From Empedobacter falsenii (GTDB lineage Bacteria; Bacteroidota; Bacteroidia; Flavobacteriales; Weeksellaceae), in assembly GCF_013488205.1 (NCBI RefSeq), contig NZ_CP040908.1:2916001-2980000 (forward strand): a stretch of 64,000 bases of DNA, in the 5' to 3' direction. Made by a program: the position numbers and the translations under genes. This document shows, piece after piece, positions 2,287 through 43,375 of this stretch (position 1 is its first letter; each line of letters opens with the position of its first letter). The notes under the pieces were generated by a model. The model was given only the letters and a program-made list of their open reading frames with translations. It was not told where the DNA came from and searched no databases.

Positions 2287-2310
2287 TTTTTTTGCTTTTA
2301 TGATTATTTT

Positions 2311-2400
2311 CTTACCTTGCTAACACAAAAGGGAATCGAGTGCAAATCTCGAGCTGTCGCGCAACTGTAAGTAGAGAAAAACTATAAGCCAGACCACTTT
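2311..2400 (+). promoter_or_regulatory. Cobalamin (AdoCbl) riboswitch aptamer
   Basis: The conserved B12-box elements appear in order: AAAGGGAA at about 2328, a TCGAG/CTCGA stem, then GCTGTCGCGCAACTGTAAG, and finally AAGCCAGACCAC near 2386. The usual CCCGCAACTGTAA is here CGCGCAACTGTAA, one substitution. It lies directly before cobT-cobS-cobC, the nucleotide-loop assembly genes, so control by adenosylcobalamin fits. The exact 5' limit of the aptamer is estimated. Confidence 0.88.
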
Positions 2401-2407
2401 TTAGATG

Positions 2408-2494
2408 ATGCTTTCGCGATTGAAGCTCAATCAAAACTACATGTATTTTATTATTTGTTGAATTGATTGCACTTGATTTCGAAAGCATTTTTTT
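2408..2494 (+). terminator. Terminator-like expression platform of the cobalamin riboswitch
   Basis: ATGCTTTCG at 2408-2416 can pair with CGAAAGCAT at 2480-2488, which is followed at once by a run of T to 2494. A smaller hairpin GATTGA/TCAATC (2418-2432) lies inside. This sits between the B12 aptamer and the cobT start at 2518, so the likely mode is ligand-induced premature termination. Masking of translation cannot be excluded. Confidence 0.55.
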
Positions 2495-6042: not shown

Positions 6043-6115
6043 GCGGGAATAGCTCAATTGGTAGAGCGTCAGCCTTCCAAGCTGAATGTTGCGAGTTCGA
6101 GTCTCGTTTCCCGCT
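6043..6115 (+). tRNA. tRNA-Gly (UCC)
   Basis: 73 nt cloverleaf: acceptor GCGGGAA/TTCCCGC, D-arm AGCTCAATTGGTAGAGC, anticodon stem TCAGC/GCTGA with loop CTTCCAA (anticodon TCC), T-loop GTTCGAGTC, discriminator T. No encoded CCA. Identical to the copies at 6258 and 37267. Confidence 0.97.
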
Positions 6116-6147
6116 CTTTGAAATATTAAATTCAAAAATCAAATTTT

Positions 6148-6231
6148 GCCTTGGTGGTGGAATTGGTAGACACGCAGGACTTAAAATCCTGTGTCCATTA
6201 GGACGTGCGGGTTCAAGTCCCGCCTGAGGTA
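6148..6231 (+). tRNA. tRNA-Leu (UAA)
   Basis: 84 nt class II tRNA. Anticodon stem CAGGA/TCCTG with loop CTTAAAA gives anticodon TAA. A long variable arm (GTGTCCATTAGGACGT) and T-arm GCGGG/CCCGC are present; discriminator A. The acceptor stem includes wobble pairs, with G1 opposite U72. The same sequence occurs at 37160-37243. Confidence 0.96.
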
Positions 6232-6257
6232 CTTTTTAATTTGATTTGAAAATTTAC

Positions 6258-6330
6258 GCGGGAATAGCTCAATTGGTAGAGCGTCAGCCTTCCAAGCTGA
6301 ATGTTGCGAGTTCGAGTCTCGTTTCCCGCT
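6258..6330 (+). tRNA. tRNA-Gly (UCC), second copy
   Basis: Identical 73 nt to the copy at 6043, including the two bases AC before it. Third gene of the Gly-Leu-Gly cluster and followed directly by a strong terminator. Confidence 0.97.
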
Positions 6331-6334
6331 CTGT

Positions 6335-6761: not shown

Positions 6762-6869
6762 TCATCTTAAATTTGAAGTCAAAAATAATTTTTAATTTTC
6801 AAATGAACACTAATAGATATCAGTAAAACAAATACTTAACATCTATTTTACACGTTATTATAAGCAACA

Positions 6870-8498
6870 ATGCGATTTTTAGTTTACATATTTCTCTTTT
6901 TTTTCCAAACAATTTTGCTTTTTGGGCAAGAAAAAACGTATCATTTTTTTCGTTATAATGATGATTCAAAATCGTATACAAAAGATTTCGAAAGCAAAAA
7001 TCTTGATTCATCTTTAGATTCGCTTCAAAAAACGGGTTATTATACTTTGACGATTGATTCGATAAAAAATGAAAAAGTTTATCTAAATAAAGGAAAATTG
7101 CACCAAACAATTTGGGTGAAGAACAATGAATTGTTCGAAAATAAAAATAATTATTTCCCAACAAATAATTTAGATTCTATTCTAAATAAAATCGCCAAAA
7201 TCAACACTAATCAAGGTTATCCGTTTGCGCAAATAAAACTTGTTTCGAATGGTTTTGAAGAAAATGAACAGAAAATTGAATTGGTTTTAGACAAAGGAAA
7301 TCAGCGCAAAATTGATGGTGTAAAATTGGTTGGTTACGAAAAATTATCCAAAGGTTATTTGCGTCATGGACTTAATATAAAAACCGGCGAAGTCTACAAT
7401 GAACAGAAGTTGGCAACGATTTCGACATTAATGCAACAAACCAATTATATTGCAGAAGCGCAATTACCACAAACTTTATTTAAGCTCGATTCGACGATTT
7501 TATATTTGTATCCTCGCAAAGTGAATTCAAATTATTTTGATGGTGTTTTAGGTTTTGGAACTGATGATAACGGCGATTTTAGATTGAACGGAAATGTACA
7601 ACTTTCGTTAAATAATGTGTTCAATAGTTTAGAGGAAATCAGGTTAAATTGGATTGGAACAGCGAATAAAAATACGTCGTTGAATATTGGTGTTAAAGTG
7701 CCTTATTTGTTCAAATCTGCGATTGGTTCGGAAACTAATTTCAAGCTTTTCAAGCAAGATTCTGTTTTTGTGAATTTGGATTTTTCGGAGCGATTATTTT
7801 ATCAACTCAACCTCAACTCGAATATTGGTGTGAGCGGAATTATACAATCGTCTAACTTTTTGTTGGAAGATGATTCTTATCTAAAATCGAGCTACGACGA
7901 TTATTCGAAAATTGGTTTTGGTTTGAGTTATCACTATTTCCTGAAACATCCTTTTCGTTTGATGGAAGGAAAATCGATGTTGAATGTTGCGGTAAATTCG
8001 ATTCGTAAAAAAGAAAAGAATTTTTCGTGGACAGAAGATTTGGAAAATAAAACCGTCAATCAAGTTGAAGTTGGTCTAAAAACGTTTCGTTTGTTCGAAT
8101 TATCCAAAAAGCATTTCTTAAAAGCTGGTGCAGAGTTTAGAGGTTTACTCACGAAAGACGATGATTTTTCCGAAAACGAATTGTACAGAATTGGTGGTTT
8201 CGGGAGTTTTAGAGGTTTTAACGAAGAAAGTATTACGGCAAATATGTACGGATTTCTGAGTGCAGATTATCGTTTTGTTCCAAGCGAAGCTTTTTATATT
8301 GGGCTTTTCGCCGATTATGGTTTTATTGATAACAAACGCGCAAATCTGAACACTTCTTTATTAAGTTTAGGAACTGGAATTTCTTTTTTAACGAAAATGG
8401 GAATTTTTAATTTGAGTTATGCAGTTGGTAAAACAGACGAAACTTCTTTCGACTTCAAAGAATCTAAAATCCATTTTGGGATATTAAGTCAGTTTTAA
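6870..8498 (+). CDS. BamA/TamA-family outer membrane beta-barrel protein
   Basis: 542 residues with an N-terminal signal (MRFLVYIFLFFFQTILLFGQ). Residues about 75-200 contain POTRA-like units (LDSILNKIAKINTNQGYPFA, then KLVGYEKLSKGYLRHGLNIK). The rest is rich in alternating aromatic strands with a GGFGSFRGFNEESITANMYG segment, like the conserved barrel motif of the Omp85 family, and it ends in Phe as barrels do. It is shorter than BamA (about 800+), so a TamA-like accessory or patatin-less relative is likely. Role in outer membrane protein or lipid transport is inferred. Confidence 0.8.
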   Translation: MRFLVYIFLFFFQTILLFGQEKTYHFFRYNDDSKSYTKDFESKNLDSSLDSLQKTGYYTLTIDSIKNEKVYLNKGKLHQTIWVKNNELFENKNNYFPTNNLDSILNKIAKINTNQGYPFAQIKLVSNGFEENEQKIELVLDKGNQRKIDGVKLVGYEKLSKGYLRHGLNIKTGEVYNEQKLATISTLMQQTNYIAEAQLPQTLFKLDSTILYLYPRKVNSNYFDGVLGFGTDDNGDFRLNGNVQLSLNNVFNSLEEIRLNWIGTANKNTSLNIGVKVPYLFKSAIGSETNFKLFKQDSVFVNLDFSERLFYQLNLNSNIGVSGIIQSSNFLLEDDSYLKSSYDDYSKIGFGLSYHYFLKHPFRLMEGKSMLNVAVNSIRKKEKNFSWTEDLENKTVNQVEVGLKTFRLFELSKKHFLKAGAEFRGLLTKDDDFSENELYRIGGFGSFRGFNEESITANMYGFLSADYRFVPSEAFYIGLFADYGFIDNKRANLNTSLLSLGTGISFLTKMGIFNLSYAVGKTDETSFDFKESKIHFGILSQF

Positions 8499-9052: not shown

Positions 9053-9083
9053 TTATTTTTAATTCTATTAATTACTAATATCT

Positions 9084-9350
9084 AAAACGAGTTCATTTGT
9101 AATAAATGTGACATTACATTTATCTAAAACATGTTCGTTTGTAATAAATGTTAACTTACGTTTATCTCAATCATATCTGTTTGCGATGTTCGTCAAGAAG
9201 ATTTGATTACAAACAAGGTTATTTATAATAAATGTAAGGCTACATTAATCTAAAACATGTCCGTTTGCAATGTCCGTAAAGAAAATTTCATTACAAACAG
9301 GTGTGTTTATCCTTTCCCGAGTCCTCGGTTGATCACAAACAAGTCTGTTT
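9084..9350. repeat. 42-bp-period dyad repeat array, locus A (7 cores)
   Basis: Seven 14-bp cores close to AAACAnGTnnGTTT begin at 9085, 9127, 9169, 9211, 9253, 9295 and 9337, each exactly 42 bp after the last. Examples are AAACATGTTCGTTT (9127) and AAACAAGTCTGTTT (9337). Spacers fall into three types: ATAAATGT..ACATTTAT palindromes (9102-9123 and its variants), a non-palindromic type (9183-9210 and 9267-9294), and CGAGTCCTCGG (near 9322). The last two cores with the spacer between them, read on the minus strand, nearly match the units at 26723-26932. The 432-bp gap between genes at 9053-9484 holds this array and the promoter region of the peptidase gene, nothing else I can see. Confidence 0.88.
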
Positions 9351-9484
9351 TAGCTTACCAAAAGTATTGTGTGAATGAATACTAAGAAGTTTTATTAAAA
9401 AAACTTTAAATTTTTATAGGTTTATTGTTAACATTTTCGTGAAATTAGCTACTTATAAAATACTCACACAAAATAAATTTAAAA

Positions 9485-10678
9485 ATGCGTAAAATTTTTT
9501 ATCCAGTTTTAGCTTCTGCTTTATTTTTAGCTTCAGCTCAATTGGTGTCTGCACAAGACAATTTAGTTAATTCTTTGAACAAAAATGTTAGTGAAAATAG
9601 TAAAGAAGCTTTCAAATTTACTGATGTTATCAATTTAGCTAAAACTCCAGTAGAAAATCAAGGTTCATCAGGAACTTGTTGGTCATATTCAGGAAATTCT
9701 TTCTTCGAATCAGAAATGTTAAGAATGGGAAAACAACCTATTCAATTGTCTCCAATTTTCAATGCCAGAAATACATATGTTGAAAAAGGAAAACAATATG
9801 TTCGTATGCATGGCGCTACAACTTTAGGTGATGGAGGTTCTTTCTATGATGTTTTAAATACAATCAAAAAATATGGAGCTGTTCCAGAATCTGTATACAC
9901 AGGTTTGAATTACGGAACAAAAACAAATCAATTTGGTGAAATGGCTGCAATTCAAGAAGGAGTTTTGAAAGCGGTTGTTGCAAATCCAAATGGTAAATTA
10001 ACTCCAAACTGGGAGAAAGCCTATACAGCTGTTTTGGATAGCTATTTAGGAGAATATCCAAAGGAATTCACGTATAACGGAAAAAAATACACACCACGTA
10101 CATTTGCTGATCAAGTGGTAGGAATTAATCCAAACGATTATGTTGCGATTACATCTTTTAAAGATCACGACTATTACAAACCGTTTGTATTAGCGATTCC
10201 TGATAACTGGGCGTACGAATCTTTCTACAATGTTCCGATGACAGAAATGACTGATAACATTGATTATGCTTTGAAAAACGGATTTACAGTTGCTTGGGCA
10301 ACAGACGTTTCTGAAAAAGGATTTAGCTGGAAAAATGGTGTGGCTTATGTACCAGAAGTTGATTTTGCAGATATGAATGCACAACAAAAAGCAGATATGT
10401 TCAAAGGTCCAAAACCAGAAAAAGTAATTACAGAAGATATGCGTCAAGCTGCTTTTGATGATTACCAAACGACTGATGATCACGGAATGCACATTGTTGG
10501 TATTGCGAAAGATCAAAACGGAAAAGATTACTACATCGTGAAAAACTCTTGGGGTTTAACTAACGATTACGAAGGATATCTTTATGTAACAAAAGCATTT
10601 GTTCAGTACAAAACAACAAATATTTTAGTTCATAAAAACGGTGTTCAAAAACAAACGTTGAAAAAATTAGGAATCTAA
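9485..10678 (+). CDS. Secreted C1-family cysteine peptidase (bleomycin hydrolase/aminopeptidase C type)
   Basis: 397 residues with signal peptide ending near VSAQ (residue 24). The papain-like triad is visible: QGSSGTCWSYS with catalytic C65, DDHGMHIVGIA with H336, and VKNSWG with N354. Arrangement and length fit the C1B bleomycin hydrolase/PepC branch, but an export signal differs from the usual cytoplasmic members and is typical of the Bacteroidota group. Expected in the periplasm or anchored outside, trimming peptides. It has its own promoter region after the repeat array and converges on a chagasin-like inhibitor gene, sharing a terminator. Confidence 0.9.
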   Translation: MRKIFYPVLASALFLASAQLVSAQDNLVNSLNKNVSENSKEAFKFTDVINLAKTPVENQGSSGTCWSYSGNSFFESEMLRMGKQPIQLSPIFNARNTYVEKGKQYVRMHGATTLGDGGSFYDVLNTIKKYGAVPESVYTGLNYGTKTNQFGEMAAIQEGVLKAVVANPNGKLTPNWEKAYTAVLDSYLGEYPKEFTYNGKKYTPRTFADQVVGINPNDYVAITSFKDHDYYKPFVLAIPDNWAYESFYNVPMTEMTDNIDYALKNGFTVAWATDVSEKGFSWKNGVAYVPEVDFADMNAQQKADMFKGPKPEKVITEDMRQAAFDDYQTTDDHGMHIVGIAKDQNGKDYYIVKNSWGLTNDYEGYLYVTKAFVQYKTTNILVHKNGVQKQTLKKLGI

Positions 10679-25941: not shown

Positions 25942-26625
25942 TCAACTTGCAGGCAACACACTATTTCTTGCTGCTTTCACAATCTCATTCAAATCGTGGT
26001 ACAAATTAGACCAATCCGGTACATCTTTCATTGCTGTAATTAGATTGAGGTAAGATCGCAGTACTTGTTCCAATTCTTTTCGAGAAGATGACGCACTCGA
26101 TATTTGACGAAGATCTGCATTAGCCTCTGCTTGTTGCGCAAATAATATCTCAAAATCGGTATGTTTTGTTTTCAAATCATCAAAAGCTGATACAAGCGAT
26201 AAGTTAATAATACGCAATGTATTATCTGGCTTTTCTAATTCTTCGATAAGCTTCTTCAATTGAGCTGTTTCGGCAGAATAACTCAATCTGTCTAAATCCA
26301 GTCCAAACATTTGGAAAACTTTGTACAAAGCTTCCGCATCTTGATAGTTCGCGACAGAAGTCAATTTGCGGTAACCATTCAGGAAAGCCTTCATGTTACT
26401 AAACGCAACATCGCGCTCTTTATCTGCTGTCGCCACCTCTTTTCCTTTTCCACTGTAGGTCAACTTTGCGTATACCGTATCGTAGTTTTGATAACTCGCA
26501 ATAAGCGACAACAACAAAGGGTGGTTCTCTACAATGGTATAATTTCCAGTTTGAGAAGAATTGATAATTCGCTGCGCTAATGTCGCCAGATTTTTTGTAG
26601 ATAATGAAGTTAATGTAATTTTCAT
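25942..26625 (-). CDS. DUF6261 family protein
   Basis: 227 residues from the ATG at 26625 (MKITLTSLSTKNLATLAQ); a start 9 codons upstream is less likely. All-helical in appearance. SSQTGNYTIVENHPLLLSLI and AEALYKVFQMFG resemble the DUF6261 family of Bacteroidota, of unknown function. GC content is visibly higher than in flanking genes. A 42-bp-period repeat array begins 97 bp before its start codon and separates it from a divergent nuclease-like gene. Confidence 0.7.
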   Translation of the reverse strand: MKITLTSLSTKNLATLAQRIINSSQTGNYTIVENHPLLLSLIASYQNYDTVYAKLTYSGKGKEVATADKERDVAFSNMKAFLNGYRKLTSVANYQDAEALYKVFQMFGLDLDRLSYSAETAQLKKLIEELEKPDNTLRIINLSLVSAFDDLKTKHTDFEILFAQQAEANADLRQISSASSSRKELEQVLRSYLNLITAMKDVPDWSNLYHDLNEIVKAARNSVLPAS

Positions 26626-26722
26626 AGTAGATTGTTTTAGGTTATAATTCACTTAATGTTAGTGTTTTATAAACTTAATCAATATATTATTATCAAACAA
26701 TAGTTTTTATAACTAAATAATT

Positions 26723-26932
26723 AAAACAGACTTGTTTGTAATTAACTGAGGACTCAGGTAAGGTAAAACAGACTTGTTTGTAATCAACCGAGGACTCGGG
26801 AAAGCTAAAACAGACCTGTTTATAATAAACCAAGGACTCGGGTAAGGTAAAACAGACTTGTTTATAATTAACCGAGAGCTCGGGAAAGGTAAAACACACT
26901 TGTTTATAATAAAATGAAAATTCTGCTAAGGT
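26723..26932. repeat. 42-bp tandem repeat array, locus B (5 units)
   Basis: Five units of exactly 42 bp start at 26723, 26765, 26807, 26849 and 26891. Each opens with AAAACAGACTTGTTTGTAAT or a close variant (core AAACA-GACT-TGTTT); four then carry CCGAGGACTCGG or a variant, a perfect palindrome in unit 2 (26788-26799). The fifth unit keeps the core but has a diverged second half. Core centre and CCGAG centre are 21.0 bp apart in unit 2, and again 21.0 bp to the next core. On the minus strand the array stays open (26950-26693, 85 codons) as a 14-residue repeat YKQVCFTLPESSVN. It lies in the 436-bp gap between divergent genes. Confidence 0.9.
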
Positions 26933-27061: not shown

Positions 27062-28060
27062 ATGAATATAAAAGACTTAGCTTTAAAAATTGATGAATTA
27101 TCATCTAATTTCAAAATCGGAAATCTACAAGAAATAAGAAAGAATCTAAAAAATTTAAAAGCAAAACCTGGCTCAAAAATATTCAATGATAAAACAACAT
27201 TTGATGATTGGGCGTTCCATTATGGAGGAAGGAAAGAATTACAATTCAACATTGGTAATGAAGATGAAGGGATTAGATATGGAATTGCATTTTCATTAGA
27301 ACCAAGTCAATCATTACCTAATATTCAAGATTTATTTCCAAAAATATTACGTTTAAATTCTCTAATAATAAATCAACCTGATTTATTTTCTGACTATAAA
27401 ATGTGGTATTGGCAAAATGGAAAACGTAGTGTAATAAACAATGTATTTGAAATAAATGAACAACTAACAAAAATTGGAACTTTTATTTTTATAGGAAAAT
27501 TAGTTGATTATAATAATGTTAATGTAATTGAAATTCTTAAAGATTTTGATGATTTATTGAACATCTATATCGAAGTAGAAAATGAAAACATTACAATTGG
27601 ACCTCAAAACCAAAAATCTACAACTGGATTTATATTTGCTAGTGGAAGACCAAACCTTCCTCAAAGCACTAAATACACAAGAACCCAACAACAAATAAAT
27701 GTAAATGCAAGACATTCGTTCTTACAAGAAAAACTATACAAAAAGCTAACATCAGTATTTGGTGAAGAAACTGTTGGAATGGAAATATTTTTAAATGGAA
27801 AAAAAATAGATTTAGTTTTAAAAATAAATAATTTATTTACTTTTTATGAAATTAAAACTTCCAACTCAGCAAAACAATGTATTAGAGAAGCCCTTGGACA
27901 AATATTTGAATATACCTACTTTGACGGAAAAAAATATGCAGATGAAATTGTAATTGCAGGCGAATATCCAATTGATAAATCAACCCAAAAGTATTTAAAA
28001 TTCCTAAATTCAGAATTTAATTTACCAATATCATATCATCAAATAGATATTAATTTTTAA
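27062..28060 (+). CDS. Putative PD-(D/E)XK-type nuclease, orphan
   Basis: 332 residues, no signal or membrane segment. The last 120 residues fit a PD-(D/E)XK core: RHSFLQEKLYKKLTSVFG as the first helix, GKKIDLVLKINN supplying the Asp, FYEIKTSN supplying E-x-K, then a helix with REALGQIFEYTYF. The N-terminal 200 residues (FDDWAFHYGGRKELQFNIG) are unlike any enzyme I can name, but such extensions in restriction-like proteins recognise DNA or modified bases. No methyltransferase partner is adjacent. A defence role is plausible but inferred. AT-rich codon use, near the repeat array and an atypical DUF6261 gene, hints at an accessory site. Confidence 0.6.
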   Translation: MNIKDLALKIDELSSNFKIGNLQEIRKNLKNLKAKPGSKIFNDKTTFDDWAFHYGGRKELQFNIGNEDEGIRYGIAFSLEPSQSLPNIQDLFPKILRLNSLIINQPDLFSDYKMWYWQNGKRSVINNVFEINEQLTKIGTFIFIGKLVDYNNVNVIEILKDFDDLLNIYIEVENENITIGPQNQKSTTGFIFASGRPNLPQSTKYTRTQQQINVNARHSFLQEKLYKKLTSVFGEETVGMEIFLNGKKIDLVLKINNLFTFYEIKTSNSAKQCIREALGQIFEYTYFDGKKYADEIVIAGEYPIDKSTQKYLKFLNSEFNLPISYHQIDINF

Positions 28061-37080: not shown

Positions 37081-37159
37081 TTTGGATTTTTATTCTAAAA
37101 TAATCAATCTAAACTAAAAACAAAAAAAGCCCAAGAAAATAAATTCTTGAGCTTTGTTG

Positions 37160-37243
37160 TACCTCAGGCGGGACTTGAACCCGCACGTCCTAATGGACAC
37201 AGGATTTTAAGTCCTGCGTGTCTACCAATTCCACCACCAAGGC
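37160..37243 (-). tRNA. tRNA-Leu (UAA), second copy
   Basis: 84 nt with the same sequence as the copy at 6148-6231, on the minus strand; anticodon TAA, long variable arm. Second gene of a Gly-Leu pair. Confidence 0.96.
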
Positions 37244-37266
37244 ATCCACTTCTAAGAAAGAAGTTG

Positions 37267-37339
37267 AGCGGGAAACGAGACTCGAACTCGCAACATTCAG
37301 CTTGGAAGGCTGACGCTCTACCAATTGAGCTATTCCCGC
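37267..37339 (-). tRNA. tRNA-Gly (UCC), third copy
   Basis: 73 nt identical to the copies at 6043 and 6258. First gene of the minus-strand pair, 23 bp before tRNA-Leu. Confidence 0.97.
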
Positions 37340-42185: not shown

Positions 42186-42258
42186 TTTCTAAAATTTGAT
42201 TACAAAGGTAAATAATGTTTCGGTTTTACTTATCTTTATTCTTAAAATCAACCATTTT

Positions 42259-43311
42259 ATGCAAATATTCTATACCATAATTTCTTGCCTCATTATCCTT
42301 TCCGTCATTATTCCTTTCATCAAACATACACATTGGACTGTTAGAGTTTTTGATTATCCGCGATTTCAAAAATTTGCTTTGGTAATTGCTACTTGTATTT
42401 TATTCATTTTTGTACCAAAAACTTCAGTCACAATAAGTTTATTTATTTGCTTAATTTTTACTTCAATTTATTTACTTTGGGTCATTATTCCTTATTCTCC
42501 ATTTGGTAAAAAAATGATTGAACAAGTAACATTAAAACCAAATGAAAAACCGCTTGATTTACTTGTTTATAATGTTTTGCAAGACAATACGAAATATCAA
42601 AATTTGATTGAATTAATTAAGAAAAGAAATCCTGATATCATTTTTTTATTAGAAACGAACAACGAATGGATGGAACAAATAAAAGAAGCTACAAACGATT
42701 TTGAGAACAAAATAGAAGTTCCGTTAGAAAATACTTATGGATTATTGTTTTACTCTAAATTACCTATAAAATACCAAGAAATTAATTATTTAATCAGCAC
42801 AGAAATCCCTTCAATTATTGCTGATATCGAATATAATAATCAAATTGTGCGTTTCTATGGTTTACATCCAACTCCGCCAGTTCCGCAAGAAAATGAAGAA
42901 AGTGCTGAACGCGATGCTGAGATTTTGATTATTGGAAAACAAGCGAAAGAATATGGAAAAGCGTGTATTGTTTTTGGAGATTTGAATGATGTTGCGTGGA
43001 GCAGAACAACACGTTTATTTTTGAAAACTTCGCAACTTTTAGATCCTCGTCGTGGTCGTGGAATGTTCAATACTTTTCATGCGCATCATTGGTTCTTACG
43101 TTGGCCTTTGGATCATTATTTTTTGAGTTCTCAATTTCGATTAATTGATATGATACGAGAACCAAATATTGGTTCGGATCATTTTCCTATTAGTATTCAA
43201 GTTGTTTTACGTAGTGATGATGATTCGGGAGAAATGAAATTGGACCATGAAGAGAAGGTTGAAGTTGAAGAAAAAATAGAGGAAGGAATTGAAAAAGGAG
43301 ATGCGAATTAA
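42259..43311 (+). CDS. Membrane-anchored endonuclease/exonuclease/phosphatase family protein
   Basis: 350 residues from the ATG at 42259 (MQIFYTIISCLII); a start 21 codons upstream is less likely. Three hydrophobic segments in the first 100 residues, then the EEP domain: VYNVLQDN, NPDIIFLLETNNEWM (catalytic Glu), FYGLHPTPP, CIVFGDLNDVAWSR (Asp/Asn pair) and GSDHFPISIQV (Asp-His). The tail is acidic, ending in a run of Glu/Lys. DNase, phosphatase or lipid phosphodiesterase activity can all be found in this fold. A heptad repeat follows its stop. Confidence 0.85.
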   Translation: MQIFYTIISCLIILSVIIPFIKHTHWTVRVFDYPRFQKFALVIATCILFIFVPKTSVTISLFICLIFTSIYLLWVIIPYSPFGKKMIEQVTLKPNEKPLDLLVYNVLQDNTKYQNLIELIKKRNPDIIFLLETNNEWMEQIKEATNDFENKIEVPLENTYGLLFYSKLPIKYQEINYLISTEIPSIIADIEYNNQIVRFYGLHPTPPVPQENEESAERDAEILIIGKQAKEYGKACIVFGDLNDVAWSRTTRLFLKTSQLLDPRRGRGMFNTFHAHHWFLRWPLDHYFLSSQFRLIDMIREPNIGSDHFPISIQVVLRSDDDSGEMKLDHEEKVEVEEKIEEGIEKGDAN

Positions 43312-43312
43312 A

Positions 43313-43375
43313 TTTTAGATTTTAGATTTTAGATTTTAGATTTTAGATTTTAGATTTTAGATTTTAGATTTTAGA
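43313..43375 (+). repeat. Perfect 7-bp tandem repeat (TTTTAGA x 9)
   Basis: Nine uninterrupted units of TTTTAGA directly after the stop codon at 43309-43311. Such intergenic heptamer arrays expand and contract by slippage; I assign no function. Confidence 0.95.

What the first reader, a model, noticed from the sequence alone, without database searches (positions are those of the whole stretch)
9084..9350. Seven dyad cores at exact 42-bp steps, with midpoint palindromes giving a 21-bp dyad lattice (locus A)
Cores like AAACATGTTCGTTT start at 9085, 9127, 9169, 9211, 9253, 9295 and 9337 with no drift at all, while the spacers differ in sequence. In the first unit an 8-bp-arm palindrome (ATAAATGT..ACATTTAT) is centred at 9112.5, exactly 21.0 bp from the core centres 9091.5 and 9133.5. 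Strict spacing with relaxed sequence suggests selection on geometry: 21 bp is two turns of B-DNA, so all dyads lie on one face. This fits a cooperative DNA-binding array (nucleoid, partition or a regulatory filament), or a mobile repeat. No ORF of 60 or more codons crosses the array, so a purely coding explanation is weak. I do not know a described family like this.
Basis: partly seen in the sequence, partly recalled or inferred. Interest (0 to 1): 0.78.

Follow-up and report, generated by a model that had tools for sequence, protein, structure and literature searches.

The report
DUF6261 genes' helically spaced DNA arrays
The 42-base repeat belongs to an apparently undescribed two-part unit, an uncharacterised bacterial gene (DUF6261) with its own array of mirror-symmetric DNA repeats near its promoter, in which the repeat's spelling differs from gene to gene but its spacing, close to four turns of the double helix, hardly changes.

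Summary
In detail: seven cores at exact 42-bp steps and a midpoint dyad 21.0 bp away. At least three such arrays lie in this Empedobacter genome. Array B (26722-26930) sits upstream of the genome's only DUF6261 (PF19775) match; A is a dispersed copy.

In Empedobacter the four genomes with DUF6261 are the four rich in arrays. In the family, arrays and DUF6261 co-occur (55 both, 10 array only, of 316; odds ratio stratified by genus 13). DUF6261 genes picked by protein have tandem arrays upstream in 55 of 106 cases (39 from genomes chosen without regard to arrays: 16; 67 from genomes reached through arrays: 39). Sequences differ from gene to gene, yet 54 of 55 periods are 40-43 bp or two or three times that. 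Among 56 units sharing no 12-mer a second dyad peaks exactly at half a period.

Best explanation: a helically phased, promoter-linked DNA platform particular to its DUF6261 gene. That DUF6261 itself binds it is inferred; its acidity and lack of a known DNA-binding domain count against that. RAYT-type REP and TIGR-Tas fail their partner-protein test. No structure could be predicted (queue full throughout).

The parts
9079..9359 (.). Array A (dispersed copy): seven 42-bp units, core dyad AAACA-N4-TGTTT at 9085+42n; spacers of three recurring classes (ATAAATGT..ACATTTAT; TTCGTCAAGAAGATT; CCGAGTCCTCGG)
   Evidence: no DUF6261 match in the 1.5 kb on either side (L001)
9102..9123 (.). midpoint palindrome ATAAATGT-N6-ACATTTAT centred 9112.5, 21.0 bp from core centres 9091.5 and 9133.5
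26722..26930 (.). Array B (home array of the DUF6261 gene): five 42-bp units, dyad 1 AAACAGACTTGTTT and dyad 2 ACCGAGGACTCGGG, centres 21.0 bp apart (the fifth unit's second dyad is degenerate)
25942..26625 (-). DUF6261 (PF19775) gene, 227 aa from the ATG at 26625 (an in-frame GTG lies at 26652); the only DUF6261 match in this genome; array B begins about 97 bp upstream of the ATG
   Evidence: E 1.3e-21; 1 match in G000
26626..26721 (-). presumed promoter interval between array B and the DUF6261 start; no TAnnTTTG box here, only a near match (TAAGTTTA, read by eye)
9485..10678 (+). C1-family peptidase gene downstream of array A; an array is present at this site in 6 of 14 Empedobacter genomes, absent in 8

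Best explanation
The repeat is the DNA half of a two-part genetic unit: a DUF6261 gene plus an array of 40-43-bp units, each tending to hold two dyads half a unit (20-21.5 bp, two helical turns) apart, near that gene's promoter. Paralogs have different array sequences; copies are scattered elsewhere in the genome, and array A is one of these. SHOWN: the association, the usual position at the gene's 5' side, the conserved period, the half-period dyad (as a group property), and dispersed copies that co-occur with the gene. INFERRED: the array works as double-stranded DNA, as a helically phased platform on which a dimeric, sequence-specific protein assembles cooperatively on one face, so controlling the DUF6261 promoter; the binder is the DUF6261 protein itself (alone or with a partner), which would explain why paralogs have private arrays; dispersed arrays are further docking sites (regulatory or architectural) that decay when the gene is lost.
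For: (1) Neighbourhood: among 117 loci found by repeat pattern alone, a DUF6261 homolog lies next to the array in 18 (15, plus L163, L179, L114); the array is at its 5' side in 17, at the 3' side in L114. (2) Co-occurrence: Empedobacter genomes with DUF6261 (G000, G004, G007, G012) have 5-8 core pairs each; of the 10 without it 8 have none and 2 (G010, G011) have one pair. Family: 55 both, 10 array only, 66 DUF6261 only, 185 neither of 316, Fisher p 7e-18; stratified by genus, small genera pooled, odds ratio 13.3, 0 of 2000 permutations. (3) Genes picked by protein: tandem arrays upstream of 30 of 66 and 25 of 40 DUF6261 genes; the rate further away in the first set's loci is 5 arrays in 93,954 bases, 0.032 per 600 bp. 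Upstream periods 40-43 in 41, 82-84 in 9, 120-126 in 4, 73 in 1. (4) 56 unit consensus sequences without shared 12-mers: perfect 6-bp arms in 28 (mean score 5.48, shuffled 4.67); second-dyad score 2.70 at exactly half a period against a shuffled 1.86, other offsets 1.54-2.25. (5) Array similarity is at the shuffled level (7.1) when proteins are under 35% identical (7.5, 7.8) and rises to 31.8 above 75% (9 pairs). (6) A -7-like box TATATTTG lies between array and gene in 11 of 15 home loci of the window's subfamily, expected 1.8; among 30 other DUF6261 loci with a TRF array a TAnnTTTG box lies there in 6, expected 1.9, and within 130 bp before the array in 11 of the 24 that could be tested, expected 1.4. 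So the array can lie on either side of the promoter, which favours DNA over transcript. (7) A second paralog motif, GTCGGAANTTCCGAC, gives the same picture: 7 of 7 listed pairs at an exact 41-bp step although 31-51 was allowed, at home and at dispersed loci.
Against: DUF6261 shows no DNA-binding domain (all 50 members scanned match DUF6261, no other family more than 3; no solved relative, best E 0.09) and is mostly acidic: median pI 5.85, 31 of 50 below 6.5, 8 of 50 above 8. Point (5) is also what linked DNA would show by common descent, so it is no proof of co-evolution. By Tandem Repeats Finder 51 of 106 genes gave no array upstream, although several of these show degenerate arrays by eye. 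Arrays are sometimes downstream (9 of 66; 3 of 40), two of these with periods 72 and 22; L114's is at the 3' side. The window's own home locus lacks the promoter box. Of 41 genomes reached through lattice loci outside Chryseobacterium and Empedobacter only 15 have a PF19775 match (14 above the cut-off); a profile of 50 members found nothing in 16 others or doubtful ones (no positive control in that call). Spacer arms often come from different half-site types (and by eye), so one binding specificity per array is not enough. No binding or expression data exist.
Confidence: 0.42

Rival explanations
1. The array is a cis-regulatory platform for the DUF6261 gene, but the binder is another protein (a nucleoid-associated or regulatory factor); DUF6261 is an effector that does not touch DNA. 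Dispersed arrays are recombination copies of the home array.
For: DUF6261 is mostly acidic with no recognisable DNA-binding domain; promoter-like boxes lie close to the arrays.
Against: Paralogs within one genome have different array sequences (62 arrays reduce to 56 that share no 12-mer); a common host factor would favour a common motif. The rise of array similarity with protein identity does not decide, since linkage predicts it too.
Confidence: 0.29
2. The unit is a mobile repeat system like REP/RAYT in which DUF6261 is the copying factor and arrays are its non-autonomous progeny.
For: Home plus dispersed copies; site occupied in 6 and empty in 8 of 14 genomes; up to 44 DUF6261 matches in one genome; co-occurrence.
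Against: No transposase-like Pfam match in DUF6261; Y1 transposase has no match in the four array-rich Empedobacter genomes; arrays of paralogs differ; strict helical phase is not needed for transposition. Target-site duplications were not tested.
Confidence: 0.12
3. The array acts as RNA: a transcribed string of small hairpins (regulatory leader or guide array).
For: In some paralogs a promoter-like box precedes the array, so it would be in the 5' leader; in the Chryseobacterium group spacer arms pair more often than every one of 500 shuffles at 6 of 14 positions (related units, so not independent).
Against: In the window's subfamily the box lies between array and gene in 11 of 15 loci, so the array is outside that transcript; positions 1, 2, 6 and 14 pair less often than shuffled partners, and in Empedobacter only 2 of 14 positions exceed shuffles clearly; strict 40-43-bp phase is not expected of flexible RNA; near-identical units leave no guide diversity; no Nop protein in 14 of 14 genomes.
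Confidence: 0.08
4. Neutral minisatellite: tandem duplication upstream of fast-evolving genes, with dyads by chance.
For: Copy number and unit identity vary; tandem duplication by itself keeps the period within one array; array and protein divergence run together as linkage predicts.
Against: 54 of 55 upstream arrays, most of them with different sequences, share the period or a multiple; dyads exceed shuffles and the second peaks at half a period; diverged units of A (108 differences) have no indel; co-occurrence of arrays with the gene.
Confidence: 0.06

Closest known systems
F-plasmid sopC / SopB (ParB) centromere (recalled, not tested)
   Same: Tandem units of about 43 bp, each with an inverted repeat, bound by a protein encoded nearby
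   Different: Here two dyads per unit as a rule, beside chromosomal gene promoters, many paralogs with different arrays; no ParB match in DUF6261
pSM19035 omega heptad arrays (recalled)
   Same: Repeat arrays at several promoters that serve one small protein, including its own promoter
   Different: 7-bp repeats and a ribbon-helix-helix protein; no such domain matched here
REP/BIME, with or without RAYT (PMC3733652: passages and part of Table 1 read; other papers seen in a listing only)
   Same: Short palindromes, a solitary gene with repeats beside it, dispersed copies; that paper also reports CGTC-tagged repeats without a dedicated transposase in Bacteroidetes
   Different: No Y1 transposase match in the array-rich genomes; fixed 40-43-bp tandem phase, while clusters are rare in CGTC families and their stems are 8-9 bp
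TIGR-Tas arrays (recalled)
   Same: Tandem array beside a protein gene, two repeated elements per unit
   Different: No Nop-domain match in 14 of 14 genomes; units near-identical in many arrays, no guide-like spacers
Iterons of plasmid Rep proteins (recalled)
   Same: About two helical turns per site, co-evolving protein
   Different: Iterons are direct repeats at replication origins; no Rep domain matched here

Membership tests
DUF6261-array unit (defined here) | PF19775 gene beside a tandem array of period 40-43 bp | tested here: met
   array B next to the PF19775 gene; upstream array in 55 of 106 DUF6261 genes, the window's own among them
DUF6261-array unit (defined here) | second dyad at half a period | tested here: met
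   arrays A (in part) and B; 56 units as a group; for single arrays mostly not significant alone
REP of the RAYT type | Y1 (RAYT) transposase in the genome or beside the repeats | tested here: not met
   no match in G000, G004, G007, G012; matches in 6 of 14 genomes, among them G010 and G011, which keep the two-unit remnant
REP, GTAG or CGTC tagged | GTAG or CGTC tag at one end of a single stem-loop | tested here: inconclusive
   not searched systematically; array B's unit has neither by eye, but CGTC occurs in one spacer class of A and in the GTCGGAA arrays
TIGR-Tas | Nop-domain Tas protein | tested here: not met
   0 of 14 genomes; the search rang in 4 of 14 control genomes
CRISPR array | identical repeats with unrelated spacers | tested here: not met
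   spacers recur in a few classes shared between species; units near-identical in many home arrays; cas genes not searched
ParB/parS or other partition centromere | cognate DNA-binding protein with HTH or RHH | tested here: inconclusive
   no such domain by Pfam or PDB sequence search of DUF6261; no structure available, so a hidden domain is not excluded
Autoregulatory operator array | the gene product binds the array and changes its own transcription | not testable with these tools
   only closeness to promoter-like boxes seen
Known structured RNA (Rfam) | match to a covariance model at the gathering score | tested here: not met
   only tRNAs and a cobalamin riboswitch in the window

The most novel reading that the evidence does not exclude
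DUF6261 proteins are a new class of sequence-specific DNA-array binders without a known DNA-binding domain: a protein that assembles as a filament along one face of DNA on dyads two helical turns apart, with a specificity that each paralog re-invents together with its array, so that one genome can hold tens of mutually private protein-array pairs (44 DUF6261 matches in one Tannerellaceae assembly).
Probability: 0.28. Interest if true: 0.92.

Novelty: categorically new. Interest (0 to 1): 0.8.

Why it matters
It gives a functional lead for a Pfam family of unknown function: in the held library one paper mentions DUF6261 and none PF19775. It also offers a natural experiment in which dozens of different DNA sequences keep one spacing, four turns of B-DNA, so that DNA geometry and sequence specificity can be studied apart. 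If the protein is the binder, the paralog sets would be a ready source of orthogonal DNA-binding pairs.

Tried and rejected
Rejected: coding repeat (no ORF over 42 codons in A; an 85-codon TTG ORF overlaps B, taken as spurious because 42 is a multiple of 3); known RNA; RAYT; TIGR-Tas; chance. L129, L150, L153 and L174 were read as coincidences because the pattern lies in long ORFs (685-1008 codons) with no further unit (L174's neighbourhood was not printed).

Led nowhere: literature searches for the repeat; viral and phage collections (none); plasmids (one Riemerella plasmid with DUF6261, 46.6% identity); gene context of arrays (the only clusters in 5 or more loci besides DUF6261 were ABC ATPases, an abundant family, and neighbours within Chryseobacterium-group loci). 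A first lattice score at fixed 21 bp was too strict because many arrays have 20.5-bp half periods. A two-dyad score per array was significant only in aggregate (mean 8.97, shuffled 7.76, highest shuffled mean 8.20). Control in the window: of 47 ORFs, 6 have a repeat of period 38-45 or 19-23 upstream; three of these hits are arrays A and B, three are weak 21-bp repeats (scores 52-68). Structure prediction was asked for 24 times and each time the queue was full.

Spacing was tested (gap 20-36 allowed) and on DUF6261 genes picked by protein. Of these 106 genes, 39 (L197-L235, the window's own included) come from genomes chosen without regard to arrays: 16 have a 38-45-bp array upstream. The other 27 (L236-L265) and 40 come from genomes that were reached through an AAACA-type array: 14 and 25. 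In one search duplicates by the first 90 bases were dropped and L249 and L250 gave no gene by the local profile. Of the matches counted, the fetched or returned loci cover 22 of 44 in G721, 12 of 14 in G724, 10 of 11 in G719 and 4 of 10 in G706. In one search units whose midpoint is itself an AAACA core were dropped from the third group. In one search four of 320 genomes were not searched for DUF6261, and some of the 10 'array only' genomes may be among them; the two genome lists were typed from the outputs.

Full report
WHAT IS THERE. The seven cores at 42-bp steps (9085 to 9337) and the midpoint palindrome centred at 9112.5 are real. Twenty shuffled windows have at most one pair of loose cores at 42 bp; the real window has nine. 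A second array in the window, B, at 26722-26930, has the cleanest form of the unit: TAAAACAGACTTGTTTGTAATNAACCGAGGACTCGGGTAAGG, that is a 14-bp dyad, a 7-bp linker, a second 14-bp dyad and a 7-bp linker. A third array lies at C1:1253355-1253593 of the same genome.

SPREAD AND PHASE. A pattern of two cores with a gap of 20-36 bp was sought in 320 genomes of the family: 65 have it. In the 30 loci brought in by that search, steps between exact cores (34-50 bp looked at) are 42 bp 44 times, 41 bp once, and 47 bp twice, in one sequence shared by two genomes. In 395 genomes spread over the phylum only four have it, all in the same family, and two of these are that 47-bp case. Many are Chryseobacterium and Empedobacter; others are labelled Bacteroidales, Odoribacteraceae, Chitinophagaceae, Verrucomicrobiales, Spirochaetaceae and more; some are probably chance. 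In several taxa the midpoint holds a different dyad, for example TCCCAACGTTGGGA (L086), TGCAGATTTCTGCA (L091), TCGGCATGTGCCGA (L095), TTGCAAGGTTGCAA (L186). The mean dyad score as a function of distance from the core (12-30.5 bp) is highest at exactly 21.0 bp in all three groups: 0.43 in 55 Empedobacter units (next best 0.37), 0.47 in 165 Chryseobacterium-group units (next 0.42, at 13.0), 0.57 in 85 others (next 0.42, at 12.5).

THE PARTNER. Open frames within 3.5 kb of the 117 arrays (597 in all) were compared with each other. The largest cluster, in 15 loci, is one protein family, DUF6261; a profile added L163, L179 and L114. In 17 of the 18 the array is at the gene's 5' side. In the window array B is the one beside the DUF6261 gene (25942-26625, minus strand; PF19775 E 1.3e-21). 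It is the only DUF6261 match in this genome, so A and the third array are dispersed copies. Eight dispersed Empedobacter loci (A and the third array among them) have no DUF6261 match in the flanks held, at most 1.5 kb a side, while G000, G004, G007 and G012 each have an array beside theirs.

CO-OCCURRENCE. In Empedobacter, DUF6261 is in G000, G004, G007 and G012, which are the genomes with 8, 6, 5 and 5 core pairs; G010 and G011 lack it and have one pair, at the peptidase locus; the other eight lack both. In the family 55 genomes have both, 10 the array only, 66 DUF6261 only and 185 neither (316 searched; Fisher p 7e-18). Stratified by genus, with small genera pooled, the odds ratio is 13.3 and none of 2000 within-stratum permutations reaches 55. 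In the phylum at large DUF6261 is rare: 6 of 296, four of them in the same family. Yet 15 of 41 genomes reached through arrays outside Chryseobacterium and Empedobacter match it (14 above the cut-off), some many times: 44 in a Tannerellaceae assembly, 20 in one labelled Akkermansia, 14 in Flaviaesturariibacter. The other 26 had no match; a profile of 50 members found nothing in 15 of these and in the one below the cut-off (without a positive control).

A TEST THAT DOES NOT USE THE MOTIF OF THE WINDOW. DUF6261 genes were picked by protein. Of 66 distinct genes, 30 have a tandem array within 600 bp upstream and 9 downstream (score 80 or more, any period of 10 or more; a looser score with periods of 38-45 or 19-23 gives 30 and 7). 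Of 40 further paralogs from four genomes, 25 have one upstream and 3 downstream. Within the 106, 39 genes come from genomes chosen without regard to arrays and 16 of these have a 38-45-bp array upstream; the other 67 come from genomes reached through an array of the window's type. Further away in the first set's loci the rate is 5 in 93,954 bases. Upstream periods are 40-43 bp in 41 of 55, 82-84 in 9, 120-126 in 4 and 73 in one: 54 of 55 are one, two or three units of 40-43 bp. Of 12 downstream arrays 10 fit as well; the others have 72 and 22 bp. Sequences differ: 62 arrays reduce to 56 whose units share no 12-mer. Among these 56, 28 have a dyad with perfect 6-bp arms (mean 5.48 against 4.67 in shuffles), and the score of a second dyad peaks exactly at half a period (2.70 against 1.86), with 1.54-2.25 at the other offsets within 7 bp. 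Array similarity is near the shuffled level for proteins under 35% identical (7.5 and 7.8 against 7.1) and rises to 31.8 above 75% (9 pairs); linked DNA would do the same by common descent, so this shows fast turnover of sequence under a fixed period rather than co-evolution. A second motif, GTCGGAANTTCCGAC, gives the same picture in three of five Chryseobacterium genomes: seven listed pairs, all at 41 bp though gaps of 16-36 were allowed, beside DUF6261 genes and at loci without one.

POSITION RELATIVE TO THE PROMOTER. In 15 home loci of the window's subfamily a Bacteroidota -7 box (TAnnTTTG; the consensus is recalled) lies between array and start codon in 11, each time as TATATTTG 40-55 bp before the ATG; 1.8 were expected. 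The arm TGTTTG of the last dyad then falls about where a -33 TTTG would be (read by eye). The window's own home locus has only a near match. Among 30 other DUF6261 loci with an array the box lies between array and gene in 6 (expected 1.9), and within 130 bp before the array in 11 of the 24 with enough sequence (expected 1.4), so that there the array would be in the leader. Arrays thus occur on both sides of the promoter, which speaks for action as DNA.

HISTORY OF LOCUS A. At the peptidase locus of 14 Empedobacter genomes the array is absent in eight and present in six with different unit numbers; by eye, conserved sequence resumes on both sides. One unit in G007 has lost one base. Chryseobacterium loci L108, L110 and L124 differ by exchange of whole half-units between dyad centres (read by eye). 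In the Chryseobacterium group spacer arms pair more often than all 500 shuffles at 6 of 14 positions but less often at others; in Empedobacter only two positions stand out. Mixed arms speak against a folded hairpin and for half-sites read one by one.

MECHANISM. Shown: gene and array belong together; period and half-period dyads are kept while sequence is not. Inferred: a dimeric sequence-specific protein assembles on one face of the array and controls the promoter. The likeliest binder is the DUF6261 protein. Against this, no member shows a DNA-binding domain and most are acidic (median pI 5.85; 31 of 50 below 6.5, 8 of 50 above 8). A structure would help, but the predictor's queue was full at all 24 attempts. 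I give 0.42 to the stated mechanism, 0.29 to a platform bound by another protein, and little to mobility, RNA or neutrality. The existence of the gene-array unit itself I hold to be above 0.9.

NOVELTY. The library searched holds one paper that mentions DUF6261, a Streptococcus study (seen in the listing only), and none with PF19775. Searches for such repeats found nothing alike in their listings; most subscription papers are not in that library. Of the nearest described systems, RAYT-type REP (PMC3733652, passages read) and TIGR-Tas (recalled) fail their partner-protein test here; CGTC-tagged REP, which that paper reports from Bacteroidetes without a dedicated transposase, differs in stem length and clustering but was not tested systematically.

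Noticed in passing
L091:5918-6700 (minus), array at about 6834-7110: A two-dyad 42-bp array (AAACAACGTTGTTT / TGCAGATTTCTGCA) lies just upstream of a 261-aa protein with no Pfam match and no detectable relation to DUF6261: perhaps a second family with the same kind of array.
   Followed up: partly
L100, L123, L125, L128, L135, L151, L158 (Spirochaetaceae Pc512_bin84); L106, L152 (Chitinophagaceae C1_MAG_00011); L132 (Nostoc); L115 (Geomonas): Arrays of 21-bp direct units, a 14-bp dyad plus a 7-bp linker. The Spirochaetaceae, Nostoc and Geomonas genomes gave no DUF6261 match, the Chitinophagaceae one gave 11; partner elsewhere unknown.
   Followed up: partly
G721 (Tannerellaceae Pc512_bin25), loci L244, L256, L273-L292: 44 DUF6261 matches in a 3.1-Mb assembly; of 22 examined, 17 have an upstream tandem array, of differing sequence.
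   Followed up: partly
L131:3224-3517: One Chitinophagaceae array switches from AAACAGGGTTGTTT to TAACTAGGTAGTTA units without leaving the 21-bp phase.
   Followed up: no
window 27062-28060 (+): Gene beside array B with no Pfam match; weak similarity (E 0.0074) to a CARF-PDDEXK model of PADLOC.
   Followed up: no
window 43308-43375: Heptanucleotide repeat TTAGATT, 9.7 copies, at the stop of an ORF at 42196-43311: possible phase-variable site.
   Followed up: no
window 2297-2417: Cobalamin riboswitch (Rfam RF00174, 33 bits).
   Followed up: no
window 6043-6331 and 37159-37339: Two tRNA clusters with the same anticodons, Gly(tcc)-Leu(taa)-Gly(tcc) and Leu(taa)-Gly(tcc).
   Followed up: no
NZ_CP072187.1:65821-66489: DUF6261 gene on a 104-kb Riemerella anatipestifer plasmid, 46.6% identity.
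   Followed up: no
assembly labelled Akkermansia muciniphila, G711 (L088, L159): 6.5 Mb with 20 DUF6261 matches; the size does not fit A. muciniphila as I recall it, so the label may be wrong.
   Followed up: no
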